Positions 23,088 through 30,259 of a stretch of DNA of 56,287 nucleotides are shown in pieces. A program made the translations under genes and the position numbers. A model generated the notes under the pieces. That model saw only the letters and a program-made list of their open reading frames with translations, searched no databases and was not told where the DNA came from. The stretch is from an uncultured Rhodospirillales bacterium (GTDB lineage Bacteria; Pseudomonadota; Alphaproteobacteria; Acetobacterales; Acetobacteraceae), in the NCBI GenBank assembly GCA_903823665.1, contig CAIJTR010000096.1, positions 1 through 56,287 of the forward strand, given 5' to 3'. Numbering within the stretch: position 1 is the first letter of the stretch; the number at the start of each line of letters is the position of its first letter.

Positions 23088-23914
23088 GCCACCATTATAC
23101 GCCTTTGCCGCCAGCGACCAACCAATGCCACTGCCGACAGCGTCAGGCCGCATAGCAGGATCGACAGCGCCGGGCTCGGTCCATAGCTCACGTCGAAATT
23201 GCCCTGGAACACCCGCATCGGGTCAATCTTTGTGGCAAGCCCATACCACGCAACCTCCACCGCGGCCGTGGCCACACTCGCCCCCACCGCAATCAGCGGC
23301 AGCGGCCACCATTGCAGGCGGGAGGCGCGGGAGGTTAGGCGCCAGATCATCTCCCACAGGAAAAGTCCGGTGACGAACACCGCCGCACTCACGTCGACCT
23401 TGGACTGCAGGAAATAGTGAAACAGCGCCAGTGCAGCCAGCGGATAGGAAGCCTTGTGCAAAGGCTTCCACCGCTTGCCCAGCCGCTTCACCCAGCCATC
23501 GGTGGACGTGATCGCCAACGCCAGCAGCCCCAGGAACGTCACGAAGCCGATGGTGAGGTAGAACCGCAGCACGATCTCACTGGCAACCTTGATCAGATCG
23601 AACTTCTGGTCGATCACATAAAGTCCGAAATGGATGCCCGCGTAGCACGCAGCCCCAACCCCGATCATGCGCCGCAGCGGCACAATGCGCTGCCAGTCCA
23701 GCACCGAGCGCAACGGCGTGATGGCGAGTGACGCCAGCAGGAAATACACCGCGTAGTCACCAGTGCCATGCGTGAACTCCCGCACCGGGCGGCCACCGAG
23801 GCCACCGGTCAGCCACAGCGCCAGCAGCCGCAGAAACGGCACCACGAGGATGGTCAGCGTCACCGCGCGGATTGGCGAAAAGCGGCCTTTGCGGTCCTGG
23901 ATCAATGAAAACAT
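23084..23914 (-). CDS. msrQ: Heme-binding membrane subunit of the MsrPQ methionine sulfoxide reductase
   Basis: 276 residues, somewhat longer than the ~200 of enterobacterial MsrQ because of a C-terminal extension with two more hydrophobic segments. The ferric-reductase-like core has several helices with histidines in GIHFGLYV, KPLHKASYPL and LFHYFLQ, the heme ligands expected for the family, and the RRMIG motif. MsrQ passes quinone electrons to periplasmic MsrP, which repairs oxidised methionines. No msrP is next to it, which is unusual. Confidence 0.88.
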   Translation of the reverse strand: MFSLIQDRKGRFSPIRAVTLTILVVPFLRLLALWLTGGLGGRPVREFTHGTGDYAVYFLLASLAITPLRSVLDWQRIVPLRRMIGVGAACYAGIHFGLYVIDQKFDLIKVASEIVLRFYLTIGFVTFLGLLALAITSTDGWVKRLGKRWKPLHKASYPLAALALFHYFLQSKVDVSAAVFVTGLFLWEMIWRLTSRASRLQWWPLPLIAVGASVATAAVEVAWYGLATKIDPMRVFQGNFDVSYGPSPALSILLCGLTLSAVALVGRWRQRRIMVA

Positions 23915-23955
23915 CGGAAAGCCTGCTCGCTCTGTGTGCGGAACGGACTACGGTA

Positions 23956-24618
23956 TCATGGCTTGCGTGACACCGGGGCGGGCATGATTTTTCGGTAATT
24001 CGAAGGCACCCGGAAAACCGCCTCACCAAGCGGGGCGAACTTCACTGCCGTGGCTTCCGCCAGCACCAGCCCGTCCGCCTCCGCACGCAGCATCACGCCA
24101 TCAGATGTCATGCAAATCGAGACCTTCCGGCCTGACAGATCATTCGTCTGCCACAACGTGCAGGGCAGGCCCTGAATTTGTGCCACCTCACCTTTGGTGA
24201 AACGCCCACCCGGAGCGGCCCCGGGCAATGCCTTGTCACCGCCATCGACCTGCACCACGGAGCGATCGGCCTCCCGCACCGCCTGCATGATGTGGGTTTG
24301 CTGATCGATAATCATGTAAAGCCCGGGCGAGGGCGGATCGACGCGGAGTTTGCCAAGCGTTACCCCCCAGCGCAGCCGCTGCTCCAGCGGACCGTCTGGC
24401 CCGGCGATGCGATAGATCACGTCCACATCGCGCGTCGGCTGCGTGAGCGGGCGGTCCTCGGCGTAGGCGACATAGGACGACAACGTGAACGCGAAACACG
24501 CCGTCATTGCGAGGCGCGCTTGCGCCGTGGCAATCCACAGCCTTGCGGCCCAGCCTCGCCGTAATGTCATGGATTGCCACGCCCCCAAGCGGGGGCTCGC
24601 AATGACGGAGTTGGTCAT
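23956..24618 (-). CDS. Exported protein, paralogue of the upstream gene, with an in-frame repeat insertion in its N-terminus
   Basis: 220 residues if it starts at the ATG (24618) that overlaps the upstream stop as ATGA; a start at 24507 inside the repeat would give 183. The mature part aligns along its length with the product of 24615-25175: RD-x-x-I-x-YR near the start, PCT, a C-x-TSDG motif, and a C-terminal NYR-x-x-MP. The first ~37 codons are read through the 108-base palindromic element at 24501-24608, which is exactly 36 codons and contains no stop in this frame. A hydrophobic signal-like stretch TACFAFTLSSYVAYA follows. No named family recognised; the location is probably periplasmic. 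Confidence 0.75.
   Translation of the reverse strand: MTNSVIASPRLGAWQSMTLRRGWAARLWIATAQARLAMTACFAFTLSSYVAYAEDRPLTQPTRDVDVIYRIAGPDGPLEQRLRWGVTLGKLRVDPPSPGLYMIIDQQTHIMQAVREADRSVVQVDGGDKALPGAAPGGRFTKGEVAQIQGLPCTLWQTNDLSGRKVSICMTSDGVMLRAEADGLVLAEATAVKFAPLGEAVFRVPSNYRKIMPAPVSRKP
24501..24608. repeat. 108-base palindromic repeat element, copy A (in frame inside a coding region)
   Basis: The outer arms CCGTCATTGCGAG (24501-24513) and CTCGCAATGACGG (24596-24608) are exact complements. The inner arms GTGGCAATCCA (24527-24537) and TGGATTGCCAC (24570-24580) are also exact complements. Each half holds a small hairpin of its own (GGCGC/GCGCC and CCCCC-AAG-CGGGGG), so the whole could fold into a cloverleaf. 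A second, diverged copy is at 29161-29254. It lies six bases after the stop of the upstream exported protein and inside the start region of the next one. Confidence 0.9.
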
Positions 24619-25175
24619 TTGGATAGCGGCATGATTCGGTAATTGTCGGGCGGCGTGAACAAACCTGCGGGCTGTGTGGCCATCGTCACCGAAGTGGCCT
24701 CAATCCGCGCGCGGCGGCCATCGCGCCCCTGCCCTTCGCCGCGCAGCAGCAGACCGTCCGAGGTCAGGCACACCACGCCATGCGCGCGCGGAGCCGTGAC
24801 GTTGTAGACCGTGCAAGGCCGCCCCAGCACCTTATCAGCACCCTGCCGCTCGAATTGGAACTGGTCGGACAGAATGAACCCTGGCGTGATCCCACCACCG
24901 GGCGGCATCTCGATCACCAGCTTGGGCTGCGGCATCACGAAATCCACCCGCTCCATGGTACGATCGACCAGCACATAGCCCAGCGCCCCACCCTCGATGC
25001 GCAACCGGTCGGCGGCTGAGAAATACCGCACCGTGAAGCTCGGCGGCACCGACGCGTCAGAGCCTTCGGTGCGATAGGTGATCGCAGCATCCCGGCGCGG
25101 AAGATAACGCGGTGCGTCGGAAGCCTGCGCCGCACCGGCCAGCAAAACCGTCAAAACAAACAACAGGCGTTTCAT
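24615..25175 (-). CDS. Exported protein of unknown function, first of a tandem paralogous pair
   Basis: 186 residues, starting with an AAAGG site and overlapping the aat stop by ATGA. A clear Sec signal peptide ([19 protein letters not shown]) is followed by a beta-rich domain with the same landmarks as its downstream neighbour: [34 protein letters not shown], and the end NYRIMPL. The two Cys (PCT, VCLTSD) are shared with the paralogue and may form a disulfide. The pair looks like a tandem duplication. It may bind a small hydrophobic ligand by its lipoprotein-like beta content, but this is a guess. Confidence 0.85.
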
Positions 25176-25837
25176 GCAGAGCCTTTGGCAATGGTTACAA
25201 ACTCTGCCGAAAGCGCCGCTTCGCTGGGATGGGCGGGAAAATGCGCCTCAACCTCAACGGCCGCTTCCAGCAGGCGGCGATAATCCAGTCTCGGTACTTC
25301 CATGGCACCGAATTGCTGCAAATGTGTGGTGACCCATTGCGTGTCGAGCAGGGCAAACCCGCCCATGCGAAGCCGCGCCACCAGATGCACGAGCGCCACC
25401 TTGGATGCATCGCGCGCCACGCTGAACATGCTCTCGCCGAAGAACACCGCCCCCACCGCCACGCCATACAGCCCGCCCACCAACTGCCCATCCAGTCGCG
25501 TCTCCACCGAATGGCCAAAGCCCATGCGGTGCAACTCGGTGAACAGGCTCTCAATGCGCGGGTTGATCCAGGTGTCCATCCGCCCCGGGGCCGGGGCCGC
25601 GCAGGCCGCAATCACGCCGGCGAAATCGGTATCGACGGTGACAGTATACGGGCCGGACTGCACCGTGCGCAGCAATCGCCGCGGCAAATGAAACCCGCCC
25701 AGCGGCAAATGCCCCCGCAACTCCGGATCAAGCCAATATAGCTTCTCGCTGGTCCGGTTCTCCGCCATCGGAAACATGCCGATCCGATAGGCGCGCAGCA
25801 CCAAATCGGGCGTGACCTCTACGGTGCGACGTGACAT
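25172..25837 (-). CDS. aat: Leucyl/phenylalanyl-tRNA--protein transferase
   Basis: 221 residues, usual length. Family landmarks in order: [75 protein letters not shown], and [11 protein letters not shown]. The enzyme transfers Leu or Phe from tRNA to N-terminal Arg or Lys of proteins, marking them for ClpAP through ClpS. It is the first gene of a short minus-strand run, with the two exported paralogues coupled behind it by 4-base overlaps. Confidence 0.97.
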
Positions 25838-27027: not shown

Positions 27028-28371
27028 ATGCCCCGCCTGCGCCTGCACAACAATCACACGCGGAAATCCGAGGATTTCGTCCCGCTCGATCCTTCCCATG
27101 TGCGGATGTATGTGTGCGGCCCCACAGTGTATGACCGCGCCCATATCGGCAATGCCCGCGCCGAAGTGGTGTTTGACGTGCTGGCCCGCCTGCTCCGCGC
27201 GCTCTACCCGCGCGTGACCTACGTTCGCAACATCACCGACGTGGACGACAAGATCAACAAGCGCGCCGCCGATGAGGGCCGCAGCATCGGTGAGGTCACG
27301 GCCACAACGCTTGCCAATTTCCACGCCGATATGGCGGCCATGGGCAGCATTCCGCCGGACGTGGAGCCGCGCGCCACCGAGCATATCGGCGAGATGATCT
27401 CGCTGATCGAAAAGCTGATCGCCTCGGGCAACGCCTACCCCGCCGAGGGTCACGTCCTGTTCTCCGTCGGCAGCTTCGCCGATTACGGCAAACTCTCCGG
27501 CCGCAGCCCGGATGATCTGCTGGCTGGTGCCCGCGTGGATGTCGCCCCCTATAAGCGCGATGCCGGGGATTTCGTGCTGTGGAAGCCGTCTAGCCCCGAT
27601 CTTCCCGGATGGGACAGCCCGTGGGGTCGCGGCCGTCCCGGTTGGCACATCGAATGCTCCGCCATGTCCTGGCGCTATCTCGGCGAGAGCTTTGACATCC
27701 ACGGCGGCGGTGACGATCTGCTGTTCCCGCACCACGAGAACGAGCTCGCCCAATCCGTCTGCGCCTTCCCCGGCAGCCAGTTTGCGCGGGTTTGGGTGCA
27801 TAACGGCATGCTGACCATCAACGGCCAGAAGATGAGCAAGTCGCTCGGCAACTTTCTGACCGTGCAGCAGGTGCTCGCCATGGCCCCAGCCGAGGCGGCG
27901 CGCATGCTGCTGCTGCGGGCACAGTATTCGCAGACGCTGGATTTCTCAGAAGCAGCACTTGGCGAGTGCAAGCGCGACCTCGACCGGTTCTATCGCGCCC
28001 TCGAACGCACCCCGGCTGAGCCCGCTGCCAACGTGCCGATCTCGGTGATGGACGCGCTGTGCGACGACCTCAACACACCGCTCGCCTTCTCCGCCATGCA
28101 CGCACTCGCCGACGCCGCCATGGCCGGCAATGCCGAAGCCGCGTCCGGTTTGCTCGCCGCCGGCCATCTGCTCGGCCTGCTCATGCATAGCCCCGCTGAC
28201 TGGTTCCGTGGCGGCGATGACAGTGCCGAGATCGACGCTCTCGTGCAGGCCCGGATCGATGCCCGCAAGGCGCGCGACTTCAAAGGGGCCGACGCCATTC
28301 GCGCCCAGCTCGACGCACGCGGCATTCAGCTGGAGGACGGCCCCACCGGCACCATCTGGCGCCGCAGCTGA
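27028..28371 (+). CDS. cysS: Cysteinyl-tRNA synthetase
   Basis: 447 residues from the ATG at 27028, with GGAG at 27019-27022; a GTG two codons earlier is less likely. The zinc and catalytic features are all present: Cys30 in [16 protein letters not shown] (HIGH signature), WHIECSAM, the metal-site HHENE, and KMSKS at residues 268-272. The anticodon-binding domain is at the C-terminus ([18 protein letters not shown]). It charges tRNA-Cys. trmJ follows with its ATG overlapping the cysS stop by one base, so they form an operon. Confidence 0.97.
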
Positions 28372-29159
28372 TGACGGGAAAAGATGGCGGCGCGGACCTG
28401 CACCCGATCGGCAACTCCCCGGTCGTCATTCTCGTGCGCCCGCAACTGGCGGACAATATCGGTGCCGTCGCCCGCGCCATGGCCAATGGCGGGCTGTATC
28501 ATTTGCGCCTCGTCGCCCCGCGGGACGGCTGGCCGCAGGAGAAGGCGTGGCGCACCGCCTCGGGCGCAGACCGGCTGCTTGACGATTGCACGGTGCATGA
28601 GGACGTGGCCTCCGCCGTGGCCGATCTGCACCACGTCTACGCCACCTGCCCCCGGCCGCGTCACATCATCAAGCCGGTGCTCACCGCCCGCGGTGCCGCC
28701 GCCGAAGCCCGGCTGATCTGTGCGCGGGAGCTTCGCGTGGGCCTGATGTTCGGCCCAGAGCGCGCCGGGCTCGACAATGACGACATGGCCTGTTGCGACG
28801 CGCTGATCCGCTACCCGCTCAACCCGGATTTCATGAGCCTCAACCTCGCGCAAGCCGTGCTGGTGATGGCCTATGAGTGGTGGATGGCGGAGGATCAGAC
28901 CGTCGCCCGCACACTGATGACCAACGAAACCCGCATCGCCACCAAGGGCGAGCTGGAGAATTTCCTCGGCCACCTCACCCACGAACTCGACGAATGCGGC
29001 TTCCTCAAGAACCTGCCCAAACGCCCCGGCATGGTCCGCAACATCCGCCATTTGTTCCAGCGCGGCGAGGTGACGGAACAGGAGCTGCGCACACTGCACG
29101 GCATCGTGACGGAACTGGCGCTGGGGCGGCGGCTGAGGGGGCGGGTGGAACCTCCGTAG
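28371..29159 (+). CDS. trmJ: TrmJ-type tRNA 2'-O-methyltransferase (SPOUT/TrmH family)
   Basis: 262 residues, starting in the last base of the cysS stop. The SPOUT core motifs are all present: NIGAVARAMANGG (motif 1), GLMFGPERAGLDNDD (motif 2), and FMSLNLAQAVLVMAYE (motif 3). The C-terminal extension of ~100 residues (NFLGHLTHELDECGF, RNIRHLFQRG) is typical of TrmJ/LasT rather than TrmH. It methylates the ribose at position 32 of several tRNAs from S-adenosylmethionine. A palindromic repeat begins two bases after the stop. Confidence 0.93.
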   Translation: MTGKDGGADLHPIGNSPVVILVRPQLADNIGAVARAMANGGLYHLRLVAPRDGWPQEKAWRTASGADRLLDDCTVHEDVASAVADLHHVYATCPRPRHIIKPVLTARGAAAEARLICARELRVGLMFGPERAGLDNDDMACCDALIRYPLNPDFMSLNLAQAVLVMAYEWWMAEDQTVARTLMTNETRIATKGELENFLGHLTHELDECGFLKNLPKRPGMVRNIRHLFQRGEVTEQELRTLHGIVTELALGRRLRGRVEPP

Positions 29160-29160
29160 G

Positions 29161-29254
29161 CGTCATTGCGAGGCGCGCAAGCGCCGTGGCAATCCAGGAG
29201 CCGCATCGCGCACCTCTGGATTGCAACGGCCCCAAGCGGGGCCTCGCAATGACG
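29161..29254. repeat. Palindromic repeat element, copy B
   Basis: Outer arms CGTCATTGCGAGG (29161-29173) and CCTCGCAATGACG (29242-29254) are exact complements; inner arms GTGGCAATCCAG and CTGGATTGCAAC match with one mismatch. The internal hairpins are present (GGCGC/GCGCC and CCCC-AAG-CGGGG). Same orientation and design as the copy at 24501-24608, but 94 bases long and diverged in the middle. It lies in the gap between trmJ and the alpha/beta hydrolase. Confidence 0.9.
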
Positions 29255-29296: not shown

Positions 29297-30259
29297 ATGC
29301 TCGAACGCAGAACCGTCCTGACCGGCACCGTGCTTGCGGCTGCCATGACACGCCCTGCCCATGCGGCTGACACCCCGGACATCTGGAGTGCCAACTACAC
29401 CGCCACCAAGCCGGGCGGCATCAATCTCGCCGTCTATCGCAAGCGGCTCGGCGCACCCGACGGCAAGCCGCGTCCGGTGATGTTCTTTGTGCACGGATCG
29501 TCAGCCTCTGCCTTGCCGAGTTTCGACCTCGCTCTGCTGGGCCGGGACGATCTCTCCATTATGAATGTCGCGGCACGGTGGGGTTACGACGTCTGGACGA
29601 TGGACCATGAGGGTTACGGTCGCTCCACCCGCACCGACAACAATTCCAACATCCAGTCCGGCGTTGAGGATCTGAAGGCGGCGGCTGAGATCGTGAAGCG
29701 TGAGACCGGCGAAACACGAATGCACATGATGGGCGAAAGCTCCGGGGCCCTGCGCGTGGGAGCCTATGCCAGCGACCAGCCGGACCGCGTGGGGCGGCTC
29801 GTGCTGCAGGCGTTCACCTACACCGGCCAGGGCTCGGCGACCCTGTCAAAACGCGCCGAGCAGACCGCGTATTATCAGACGCATAATCGCAGGCCGCGCG
29901 ACGCGTCCATGCTCAACAGCATCTTCACGCGCGACAAACCGGGCCTGACGGATCAGGACGTGATCGACGCCTTCATCAAGGCCGAGATGGTCTATGGCGA
30001 CAGCGTGCCAGCCGGCACCTATCTCGATATGACCGCCAATCTGCCGGTGGTGCATCCAGACCGATTGCTCGCGCCGACATTGCTGGTCAGCGGCCAGTAT
30101 GACGGCATCGCGCAGCTTTCGGACATTTGCGACTTCTTCCAGAAGCTGCCGAACGGCGACAAGCAGATCACCATCATCCCCGGTGCCGCGCACACGCTGG
30201 TGAACTCCCAGCAGCGGTTTGCGTTCTGGCGGGTGCTGAAATCCTGGCTGGAGGGGTGA
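29297..30259 (+). CDS. Exported alpha/beta hydrolase
   Basis: 320 residues from the ATG at 29297, with a strong GGGAGG site. The N-terminus MLERRTVLTGTVLAAAMTRPAHA has a twin-arginine-like pair and a cleavage site before residue 25, so it is probably periplasmic. The alpha/beta-hydrolase core has the oxyanion strand MFFVHGSS, the nucleophile elbow GESSG with Ser148, the acid in VSGQYDGI, and the His in PGAAHTLVN. The substrate cannot be read from the sequence. The frame is open upstream through the repeat, but the ribosome site fixes this start. It converges on the amidohydrolase (7 bases between the stops). Confidence 0.9.
   Translation: MLERRTVLTGTVLAAAMTRPAHAADTPDIWSANYTATKPGGINLAVYRKRLGAPDGKPRPVMFFVHGSSASALPSFDLALLGRDDLSIMNVAARWGYDVWTMDHEGYGRSTRTDNNSNIQSGVEDLKAAAEIVKRETGETRMHMMGESSGALRVGAYASDQPDRVGRLVLQAFTYTGQGSATLSKRAEQTAYYQTHNRRPRDASMLNSIFTRDKPGLTDQDVIDAFIKAEMVYGDSVPAGTYLDMTANLPVVHPDRLLAPTLLVSGQYDGIAQLSDICDFFQKLPNGDKQITIIPGAAHTLVNSQQRFAFWRVLKSWLEG

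What the first reader, a model, noticed from the sequence alone, without database searches (positions are those of the whole stretch)
24501..24608. A 108-base palindromic repeat sits in frame inside a coding sequence
Seen: nested inverted arms (13 and 11 bp exact), an internal hairpin in each half, and a length of exactly 36 codons with no stop in the frame of the gene at 23956-24618. That frame starts with an ATGA overlap with the upstream gene's stop, then runs through the element into a signal-like stretch. Known: Rickettsia palindromic elements (RPE) are repeats inserted in frame in proteins. Inference: this is an independent example of a coding-compatible palindromic repeat that added about 36 residues to the N-terminus of an exported protein. 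Alternatively it supplies a new start codon (ATG at 24505-24507 lies in the left arm).
Basis: partly seen in the sequence, partly recalled or inferred. Interest (0 to 1): 0.72.

Follow-up and report, generated by a model that had tools for sequence, protein, structure and literature searches.

The report
Mobile palindrome inside a signal peptide
A common kind of short, self-folding DNA repeat has landed just after the start codon of a gene for a probably exported protein, and the gene seems to have survived because the repeat can be read through, or can lend the gene a new start codon.

Summary
Window 24501-24608 is a 108-bp nested palindrome, open and in frame in gene 23956-24618 (minus strand). 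It is one of 41 dispersed copies found in this genome, an uncultured Acetobacteraceae-like MAG. Its anatomy is that of a head-to-head dimer of CGTC-tagged REP units, the superfamily in which PMC3733652 places Rickettsia RPE-4 and RPE-6, though its stems differ from the four published CGTC families. Copies normally lie between genes, a median 16 nt after a stop codon. Here two genes overlap by ATGA, so a copy 7 nt after the stop falls inside the next gene. In 4 of 4 same-genus genomes with both genes, the gene starts in that ATGA without the element. Joining the flanks gives a 17-residue presequence, as long as in two of the four. Read-through from that start probably adds 36 residues to a presequence expected to be cleaved. 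The alternative has support too: dimers carry outward ATGs at their tips, and at two other junctions (three copies in two genomes) the gene appears to begin on that ATG, where several relatives have their own start. Which start works here is unresolved.

The parts
24501..24608 (.). Whole element: head-to-head dimer of two CGTC-tagged REP units (core CGTC...GACG 24502-24607), 36 codons in the host frame
24502..24537 (+). First REP unit: CGTC tag, interrupted stem, 4-nt loop, CCA tail
24538..24569 (.). Variable spacer between the two units
24570..24607 (-). Second REP unit, opposite orientation, with a different stem (heterodimer)
23956..24618 (-). Host gene, 220 aa precursor, no Pfam or NCBIfam hit; orthologues 53-60% identical in four same-genus genomes
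24615..25175 (-). Upstream tandem paralogue (weak DUF4412 hit, below cut-off)
24615..24618 (-). ATGA overlap: stop of the paralogue and ancestral start of the host gene
24568..24570 (-). Second in-frame ATG (codon 17), inside the element
24505..24507 (-). Tip ATG of the element, outward-facing and in frame: candidate replacement start
24460..24507 (-). MTACFAFTLSSYVAYA: remaining hydrophobic and cleavage region of the presumed signal peptide (AYA before ED, judged by eye)
29161..29254 (.). Second dimer in the window, intergenic, 0-1 nt after the stop of gene 28371-29159

Best explanation
A CGTC-tagged REP head-to-head dimer, normally an intergenic element lying a few bases after stop codons, was inserted 7 nt after the stop codon of the upstream paralogue. 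Because the two genes overlap by ATGA, that spot lies inside the fourth codon of the downstream gene, in the n-region of its presumed signal peptide. The 108-bp insertion keeps the frame. Most likely, ribosomes terminating on the paralogue restart at the overlapping ATG (24616-24618), as in relatives, read through the 36 element codons and reach the old hydrophobic region; the enlarged presequence is then removed at AYA/ED, leaving the exported protein unchanged. Shown: the element family, in-frame position, conserved ATGA start, and a presequence length matching two of four relatives. Inferred: start choice, export, cleavage, and why the insertion was tolerated.
For: 41 distinct dimers in this genome (79 model hits, both strands, merged by me). 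Tips are CGTC on 25 of 25 aligned copies and GACG on 22 of 25 (GACA on 3), with GGCAATCCA in 25 of 25 and unconserved flanks. The gap from upstream stop to element has median 16 nt, quartiles 9 and 30.5, n=185 ends, boundaries approximate; here it is 7. Same-genus orthologues G002, G003, G005 and G007 (4 of 4 with both genes) start in the ATGA junction and lead into a hydrophobic presequence. Flanks joined at 108 bp give MTNSCFAFTLSSYVAYA before EDRPL, 17 residues, like G003 (MKHWVVGFLLIAVPALA) and G002 (MMRRLLLLLLIAGPASA); joining at 106 bp breaks the frame. G007 has a natural presequence of about 40 residues from the same ATGA, so long n-regions occur in this family. No candidate start has a clear Shine-Dalgarno stretch by eye (the codon-17 ATG has a GGGGG run 11 nt upstream, inside a hairpin), which favours coupling at the ATGA.
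Against: The tip ATG gives a 16-residue presequence close to the native 17, without the extra 36 residues, and my crude coding score prefers it. Presequence lengths in G005 (about 30) and G007 (about 40) do not match 17. The hydrophobic core is weak (best 10-residue mean 1.4-1.8, against 2.5-3.1 in G002, G003, G005 and the paralogue), so export may be impaired. No signal-peptide predictor, expression or proteome data were available.
Confidence: 0.52

Rival explanations
1. Start donation: the element separated the gene from its old start, and translation now begins on the outward-facing ATG at the element's tip (24505-24507), giving MTACFAFTLSSYVAYA and an almost native-length signal peptide. 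A ribosome terminating 7 nt before the hairpin may open its base and free the tip ATG.
For: 278 of 296 tips in 148 dimers have an outward ATGA. The HI0933-type flavoprotein after (by eye) ftsY begins on the tip ATG in G001 and G004 (MTGNRYD, MTINTFD). Among six relatives read without an element, the nearest start codon by eye is at the same codon in G006 (GTGA at the same ftsY junction), G000 (different neighbour) and G038, and one to two codons nearer in G002, G003 and G007. In G004 no in-frame start lies upstream of the element; in G001 only a TTG does. The ABC permease in G004 begins MTTLLKARRAR on the tip; by eye five of six relatives (G000, G001, G002, G003, G007) start at the same codon and G005 one codon earlier, and no in-frame start lies upstream of the G004 element. 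A second G000 copy (L127) gives MTRSAALVTLALTLPAQA; its 34%-identical G005 orthologue, also beside rsmA, reads MRLGLVLALTLAIPAVSHA.
Against: Here the ancestral ATGA start is intact and in frame, unlike at the permease. The tip ATG lies in the basal stem and has no Shine-Dalgarno-like stretch. Other starts inside the elements are possible in the support cases: GTG at -16 in the G004 flavoprotein, ATG at -11 and TTG codons 4-5 in the permease. Frame 0 is not enriched: of 98 outward ends facing a gene on the same strand 24 are frame 0 (10 open, 2 of them shadow ORFs by eye), 34 frame 2 (22 open), 40 frame 1 (none open).
Confidence: 0.33
2. RNA-level role: the hairpin between the two cistrons tunes expression of the pair (mRNA stability, termination or ribosome stalling), and its coding phase is incidental.
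For: Strong fold on the transcribed strand; 22 of 41 copies lie between same-direction genes and 16 between convergent genes, as PMC3733652 describes for REPs it takes to be transcribed.
Against: Four relatives run the same gene pair without it; the spacer varies, only 2 pairs of the left hairpin enter the consensus, and the covariation term is tiny (-0.23 kcal/mol, 3 of 30 pairs with a two-sided change).
Confidence: 0.1
3. The insertion damaged the gene, which is a recent pseudogene, or the join is a MAG assembly artefact at a repeat.
For: Weak signal-peptide core; the genome is in 211 contigs and the repeat has dozens of copies.
Against: Both flanks belong to one conserved junction (paralogue then gene) found in G002, G003, G005 and G007; the mature part is 53-60% identical to them, stop-free, and scores as coding.
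Confidence: 0.05

Closest known systems
CGTC-tagged REPs, CGTC-1 to CGTC-4 (Di Nocera, De Gregorio, Rocco 2013, PMC3733652; abstract, background, most of the results and the discussion read; figures and supplements not seen)
   Same: CGTC tag, stem starting A-T then T-A, 4-nt loop, CCA tail, head-to-head dimers, mainly intergenic close to 3' ends, occasionally in frame inside genes, no dedicated transposase seen
   Different: Stem interrupted and longer than the published 8-9 bp; host family Acetobacteraceae, which the paper lists among groups lacking CGTC repeats. The words start codon, initiation and ATG do not occur in its main text
Rickettsia palindromic elements RPE-4 and RPE-6
   Same: PMC3733652 equates them with CGTC-4 and CGTC-1; in-frame insertions in genes
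MITEAba12 (PMC6382973, passages read)
   Same: Outward reading from its terminal repeat supplies the first four residues (MQQS) of neighbouring genes
   Different: Unrelated IS-derived MITE; a precedent for start donation by another element type
YPAL/RU-2 of Yersinia (review PMC2229807, passages read)
   Same: Repeat sequence forms part of the signal peptide of a putative exported protein
   Different: Different element; there the fusion is proposed to have made a new protein
Pneumococcal BOX elements (PMC3049150, one passage read)
   Same: boxC can encode the start codon of an expressed open reading frame running out of the element
   Different: Unrelated repeat; the frames described there are potential new CDSs

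Membership tests
CGTC-tagged REP superfamily | CGTC (or TGTC/CCTC) at one end of each palindromic unit | tested here: met
   25 of 25 aligned own-genome copies CGTC on one side; 22 GACG and 3 GACA on the other
CGTC-tagged REP superfamily | CCA tail opposite the tag; stem beginning A-T, T-A; loop 4-5 nt | tested here: met
   GGCAATCCA in 25 of 25 and TGGATTGCC in 23 of 25 copies; ATTGC/GCAAT stem and 4-nt loop in the window copy
CGTC-1 to CGTC-4 as published | Stem of 8 or 9 bp | tested here: not met
   The two units of the window copy fold as 5 bp, a mismatch, then 5-7 bp; not filed under any of the four families
CGTC-tagged REP superfamily | Head-to-head dimers predominate; mainly intergenic, near 3' ends | tested here: inconclusive
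   Head-to-head dimers, intergenic and near 3' ends: yes. But the search model was itself a dimer, so the share of single units was not measured
CGTC-tagged REP superfamily | No dedicated tyrosine (Y1/RAYT) transposase | tested here: met
   0 matches to PF01797 in G000; the same search rings in 5 of 14 control genomes. The assembly is 97.7% complete; other transposase families were not searched
Rickettsia palindromic elements | Sequence homology to a named RPE family | not tested
   Link rests on the equivalence stated in PMC3733652; no RPE sequence was fetched
RAYT-mobilised GTAG REPs | GTAG tag and RAYT gene | tested here: not met
   Tag is CGTC; no Y1_Tnp found

The most novel reading that the evidence does not exclude
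CGTC REP dimers are portable start codons: nearly every tip carries an outward ATG-A, usually ATG-ACG, and because the dimers settle just after stop codons in tight operons they can displace the next gene's start and replace it. The hairpin ends lie side by side, so a ribosome terminating about 7-12 nt before it could open the base and restart on the far tip, keeping the two genes coupled across a looped-out insertion. The window gene would be one of four such junctions seen here, at three of which (and one of the two flavoprotein copies at the fourth) the gap to the upstream stop is 7-12 nt.
Probability: 0.35. Interest if true: 0.62.

Novelty: new member of a known kind. Interest (0 to 1): 0.42.

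Why it matters
It shows how an otherwise intergenic mobile palindrome can enter coding sequence: overlapping ATGA junctions turn its usual landing zone, just past a stop codon, into the N-terminus of the next gene, and a cleaved signal peptide is an inexpensive place to absorb it. The outward tip ATG is a simple sequence property that makes start-codon capture by CGTC repeats directly testable in any genome that has them. It also records CGTC dimers in Acetobacteraceae-like bacteria, listed as lacking them in 2013 (RepRanger, PMC12306157, later counted 1,369 REPs of a class not stated in the passage in Lichenicola cladoniae, an acetobacteracean), and warns that gene starts annotated inside such repeats need checking.

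Tried and rejected
Rfam, searched for 23900-25200 only, gave one chance-level match (18.1 bits, gathering 100, E 2.2). A literature search for the 11-base tip string gave 8 papers, none on repeats by title; I saw the listing only. Direct repeats next to the element, as from target-site duplication, were not seen by eye in the 25-copy alignment.

Four of 148 dimers were flagged as lying inside a predicted gene by my own simple coding model. I set aside L203, L215 and L232 by eye as antisense shadow ORFs; L215 proved to be the flavoprotein junction on the other strand. In L198 only the part after the element looks like a protein (a methyltransferase by eye); its frame opens from a GTGA just upstream, so it may be a further read-through case, unproved. 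That gene finder is crude, and all context counts rest on it.

Selection for coding was considered and not supported: lengths are even modulo 3, openness is intrinsic, and frame 0 is not enriched at outward ends.

Sampling limits: one search examined 102 outward ends facing a gene on the same strand, 98 of them with a start-like codon at the tip; one search examined all 296 ends. Of 58 tip ORFs of 90 aa or more, I judged 10 to be real genes by score and sequence; 5 of these have their own ATG 9-16 codons on (L172, L174, L186, L206, window 29160) and 5 do not (L182, L215, L227, L127, the window gene). L182 and L215 are the same junction in two species, with very different element sequences; one old insertion or two could explain them (alignment). 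Junctions where a native start was displaced and the tip is out of frame were not counted, so the 1-in-3 expectation was not tested. The 148 dimers are G000 41, G001 43, G004 31, G009 19 and G002 14; the searches listed further places in G001, G002 and G004 that I did not fetch (and the G004/G002 list was cut), and genomes G003, G006, G011, G017, G021, G024, G037, G038, G040 and G046 with hits were not examined.

The first genome-contig scan found no relative. Searches on ribosome stalling at REPs, palindromes in signal peptides and reinitiation gave listings only, apart from PMC2229807.

Full report
What is there. The window element is a nested palindrome of 108 bp (24501-24608) with a conserved core of 106 bp (24502-24607). 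The fold is far beyond shuffled sequence.

It is a repeat family. A sequence search of the window's own genome (4.54 Mb, 211 contigs, 97.7% complete) gave 68 matches on both strands. A covariance model built from 25 copies gave 79, which I merged into 41 places. The 25 aligned copies have fixed tips CGTC...GACG (GACA in 3), inner arms GGCAATCCA (25 of 25) and TGGATTGCC (23 of 25), two different hairpins and a variable spacer, with unconserved flanks. Each half of the window copy folds alone as a tagged stem-loop with a CCA tail. Counting the own genome in, 12 of 35 genomes match the model and 12 of 60 match by plain DNA search; that is 11 of 34 and 11 of 59 relatives, and G005 and G007 of the same genus have none by either search.

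The host. The 28 loci also include records labelled Xanthobacteraceae, Solirubrobacterales and Acidobacteria. The host is therefore very probably an uncultured Acetobacteraceae member.

What kind. The anatomy is that of a CGTC-tagged REP head-to-head dimer as defined in PMC3733652 (abstract, background, most results and discussion read). That paper equates RPE-6 and RPE-4 of Rickettsia conorii with CGTC-1 and CGTC-4. The stems here are interrupted, 5 bp plus 5-7 bp, against 8-9 bp in the paper, so I place the element in the superfamily but in none of its four families. The paper lists Acetobacteraceae among groups without CGTC repeats. It found no dedicated transposase for CGTC repeats; here too no Y1_Tnp gene was found in the genome.

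Where copies sit. By a simple self-trained coding model, none of the 41 own-genome copies lies wholly inside a predicted gene; this includes the window copy, because the model begins the window gene on the element's tip ATG. 22 are between same-direction genes, 16 convergent, 3 divergent. Over 148 dimers from five genomes, the distance from an upstream stop codon to the element has median 16 nt and quartiles 9 and 30.5 (n=185 of 296 ends; boundaries approximate). In the window it is 7 nt. What is unusual is the junction: the paralogue's stop and the next gene's start overlap as ATGA, so 7 nt past the stop is already inside the next gene.

The ancestral start. In all four same-genus genomes that hold both genes (G002, G003, G005, G007), the downstream gene starts in the same ATGA and leads into a hydrophobic presequence. 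G001 and G006 gave no match and G004 one weak match. Removing 108 bp from the window gene in a script restores the frame and gives MTNSCFAFTLSSYVAYA before EDRPL, 17 residues, the length seen in G003 and G002; removing 106 bp does not restore it. G005 and G007 have longer presequences (about 30 and 40), so the match is to two of four. The insertion therefore lies in the n-region of a presumed signal peptide. No predictor was available; the cleavage site AYA/ED is judged by eye, and the hydrophobic core is weaker than in G002, G003, G005 and the paralogue.

Is it adapted to coding? Not detectably. About 55% of oriented copies are open in any given phase (143-147 of 260), dimer lengths are even modulo 3 (37/30/30 of 97), and the element part of the gene has a negative coding score. 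A random in-frame, open landing is not rare, roughly one in five (one third times 0.55), given that the gene had to survive.

Which start now? Three in-frame ATGs exist: the ATGA (24616-24618), codon 17 (24568-24570) and the tip (24505-24507). None has a clear Shine-Dalgarno stretch by eye. The conserved overlap favours the first; the resulting precursor carries element-encoded arginines ahead of the hydrophobic stretch. The tip ATG would give an almost native 16-residue presequence. I weigh them about 0.5 to 0.3.

Evidence that tips can be starts. Because a CGTC tip reads AATGACG outward, an ATG faces outward at both ends; 278 of 296 tips keep ATGA. At the junction after ftsY (named by eye), the HI0933-type flavoprotein (PF03486) begins MTGNRYD in G001 and MTINTFD in G004 on the tip ATG. 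Of six relatives read without an element there, the nearest start by eye is at the same codon in G006 (GTGA at the same junction, VNIHHYD), G000 (another neighbour, VTTSQFD) and G038, and one to two codons nearer in G002, G003 and G007. In G004 no in-frame start lies upstream of the element; in G001 only a TTG does. In G004 an ABC permease (PF00528) begins MTTLLKARRARVGW on the tip; G001 has MANLLTARRARIGW and G000 MVKLLTATRGKNGW, five of six relatives starting at the same codon by eye and G005 one earlier, again with no in-frame start upstream of the element. Other starts inside or just after these elements (a GTG, an ATG, two TTGs) are not excluded. In G000 itself a second copy (L127) sits after rsmA (named by eye), and the tip gives MTRSAALVTLALTLPAQA; the 34%-identical G005 orthologue beside rsmA reads MRLGLVLALTLAIPAVSHA. 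That copy too is open in frame from an ATGA at the upstream stop. Against a general mechanism, tips are not enriched in frame 0 (24, 34 and 40 of 98 in frames 0, 2 and 1; frame 1 is always closed by TGA), so these look like occasional rescues kept by selection.

Literature. Terminal start donation is reported for MITEAba12 (PMC6382973, passages), a BOX-encoded start codon for pneumococcus (PMC3049150, one passage), and a repeat forming part of a signal peptide for Yersinia RU-2 (PMC2229807, passages). PMC3733652 notes that GTAG tips supply stop codons and that many N-terminal REPs may be misannotated, but its main text contains none of the words start codon, initiation or ATG. RepRanger (PMC12306157, passages) holds CGTC once, in its reference list, and start codon not at all. 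Searches listed, by title and abstract start, no paper on start donation by CGTC repeats; the library is open-access only.

Verdict. The object is an ordinary kind of mobile palindrome in an instructive place. The open and testable question is whether such dimers act as portable start codons.

Noticed in passing
window 29161-29254: Second dimer of the same family, 0-1 nt after the stop of gene 28371-29159 and about 42 nt before gene 29297-30259, which has its own AGGGAGG-like stretch and ATG.
   Followed up: partly
L127:3001-3090 (G000 C53:6125-6214): Another copy between rsmA (by eye) and a small exported protein; an ATGA at the rsmA stop is open in frame through the element, and the tip ATG begins a clean signal peptide by eye.
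   Followed up: partly
L215 upstream of 1501 (G004 C629): A degenerate extra partial repeat lies directly upstream of the dimer at the ftsY/flavoprotein junction.
   Followed up: no
L189-L206, L062 (G009): In this sister genus 15 of 19 left tips read CGTCATC instead of CGTCATT, a lineage variant.
   Followed up: no
L198:1504-1597 (G009 C70): Dimer just after a GTGA junction, open in frame into a probable methyltransferase (by eye): possible further read-through case, with the tip ATG out of frame.
   Followed up: partly
L032 (G007): The orthologue of the window gene has a natural presequence of about 40 residues from the same ATGA start, without any repeat.
   Followed up: partly
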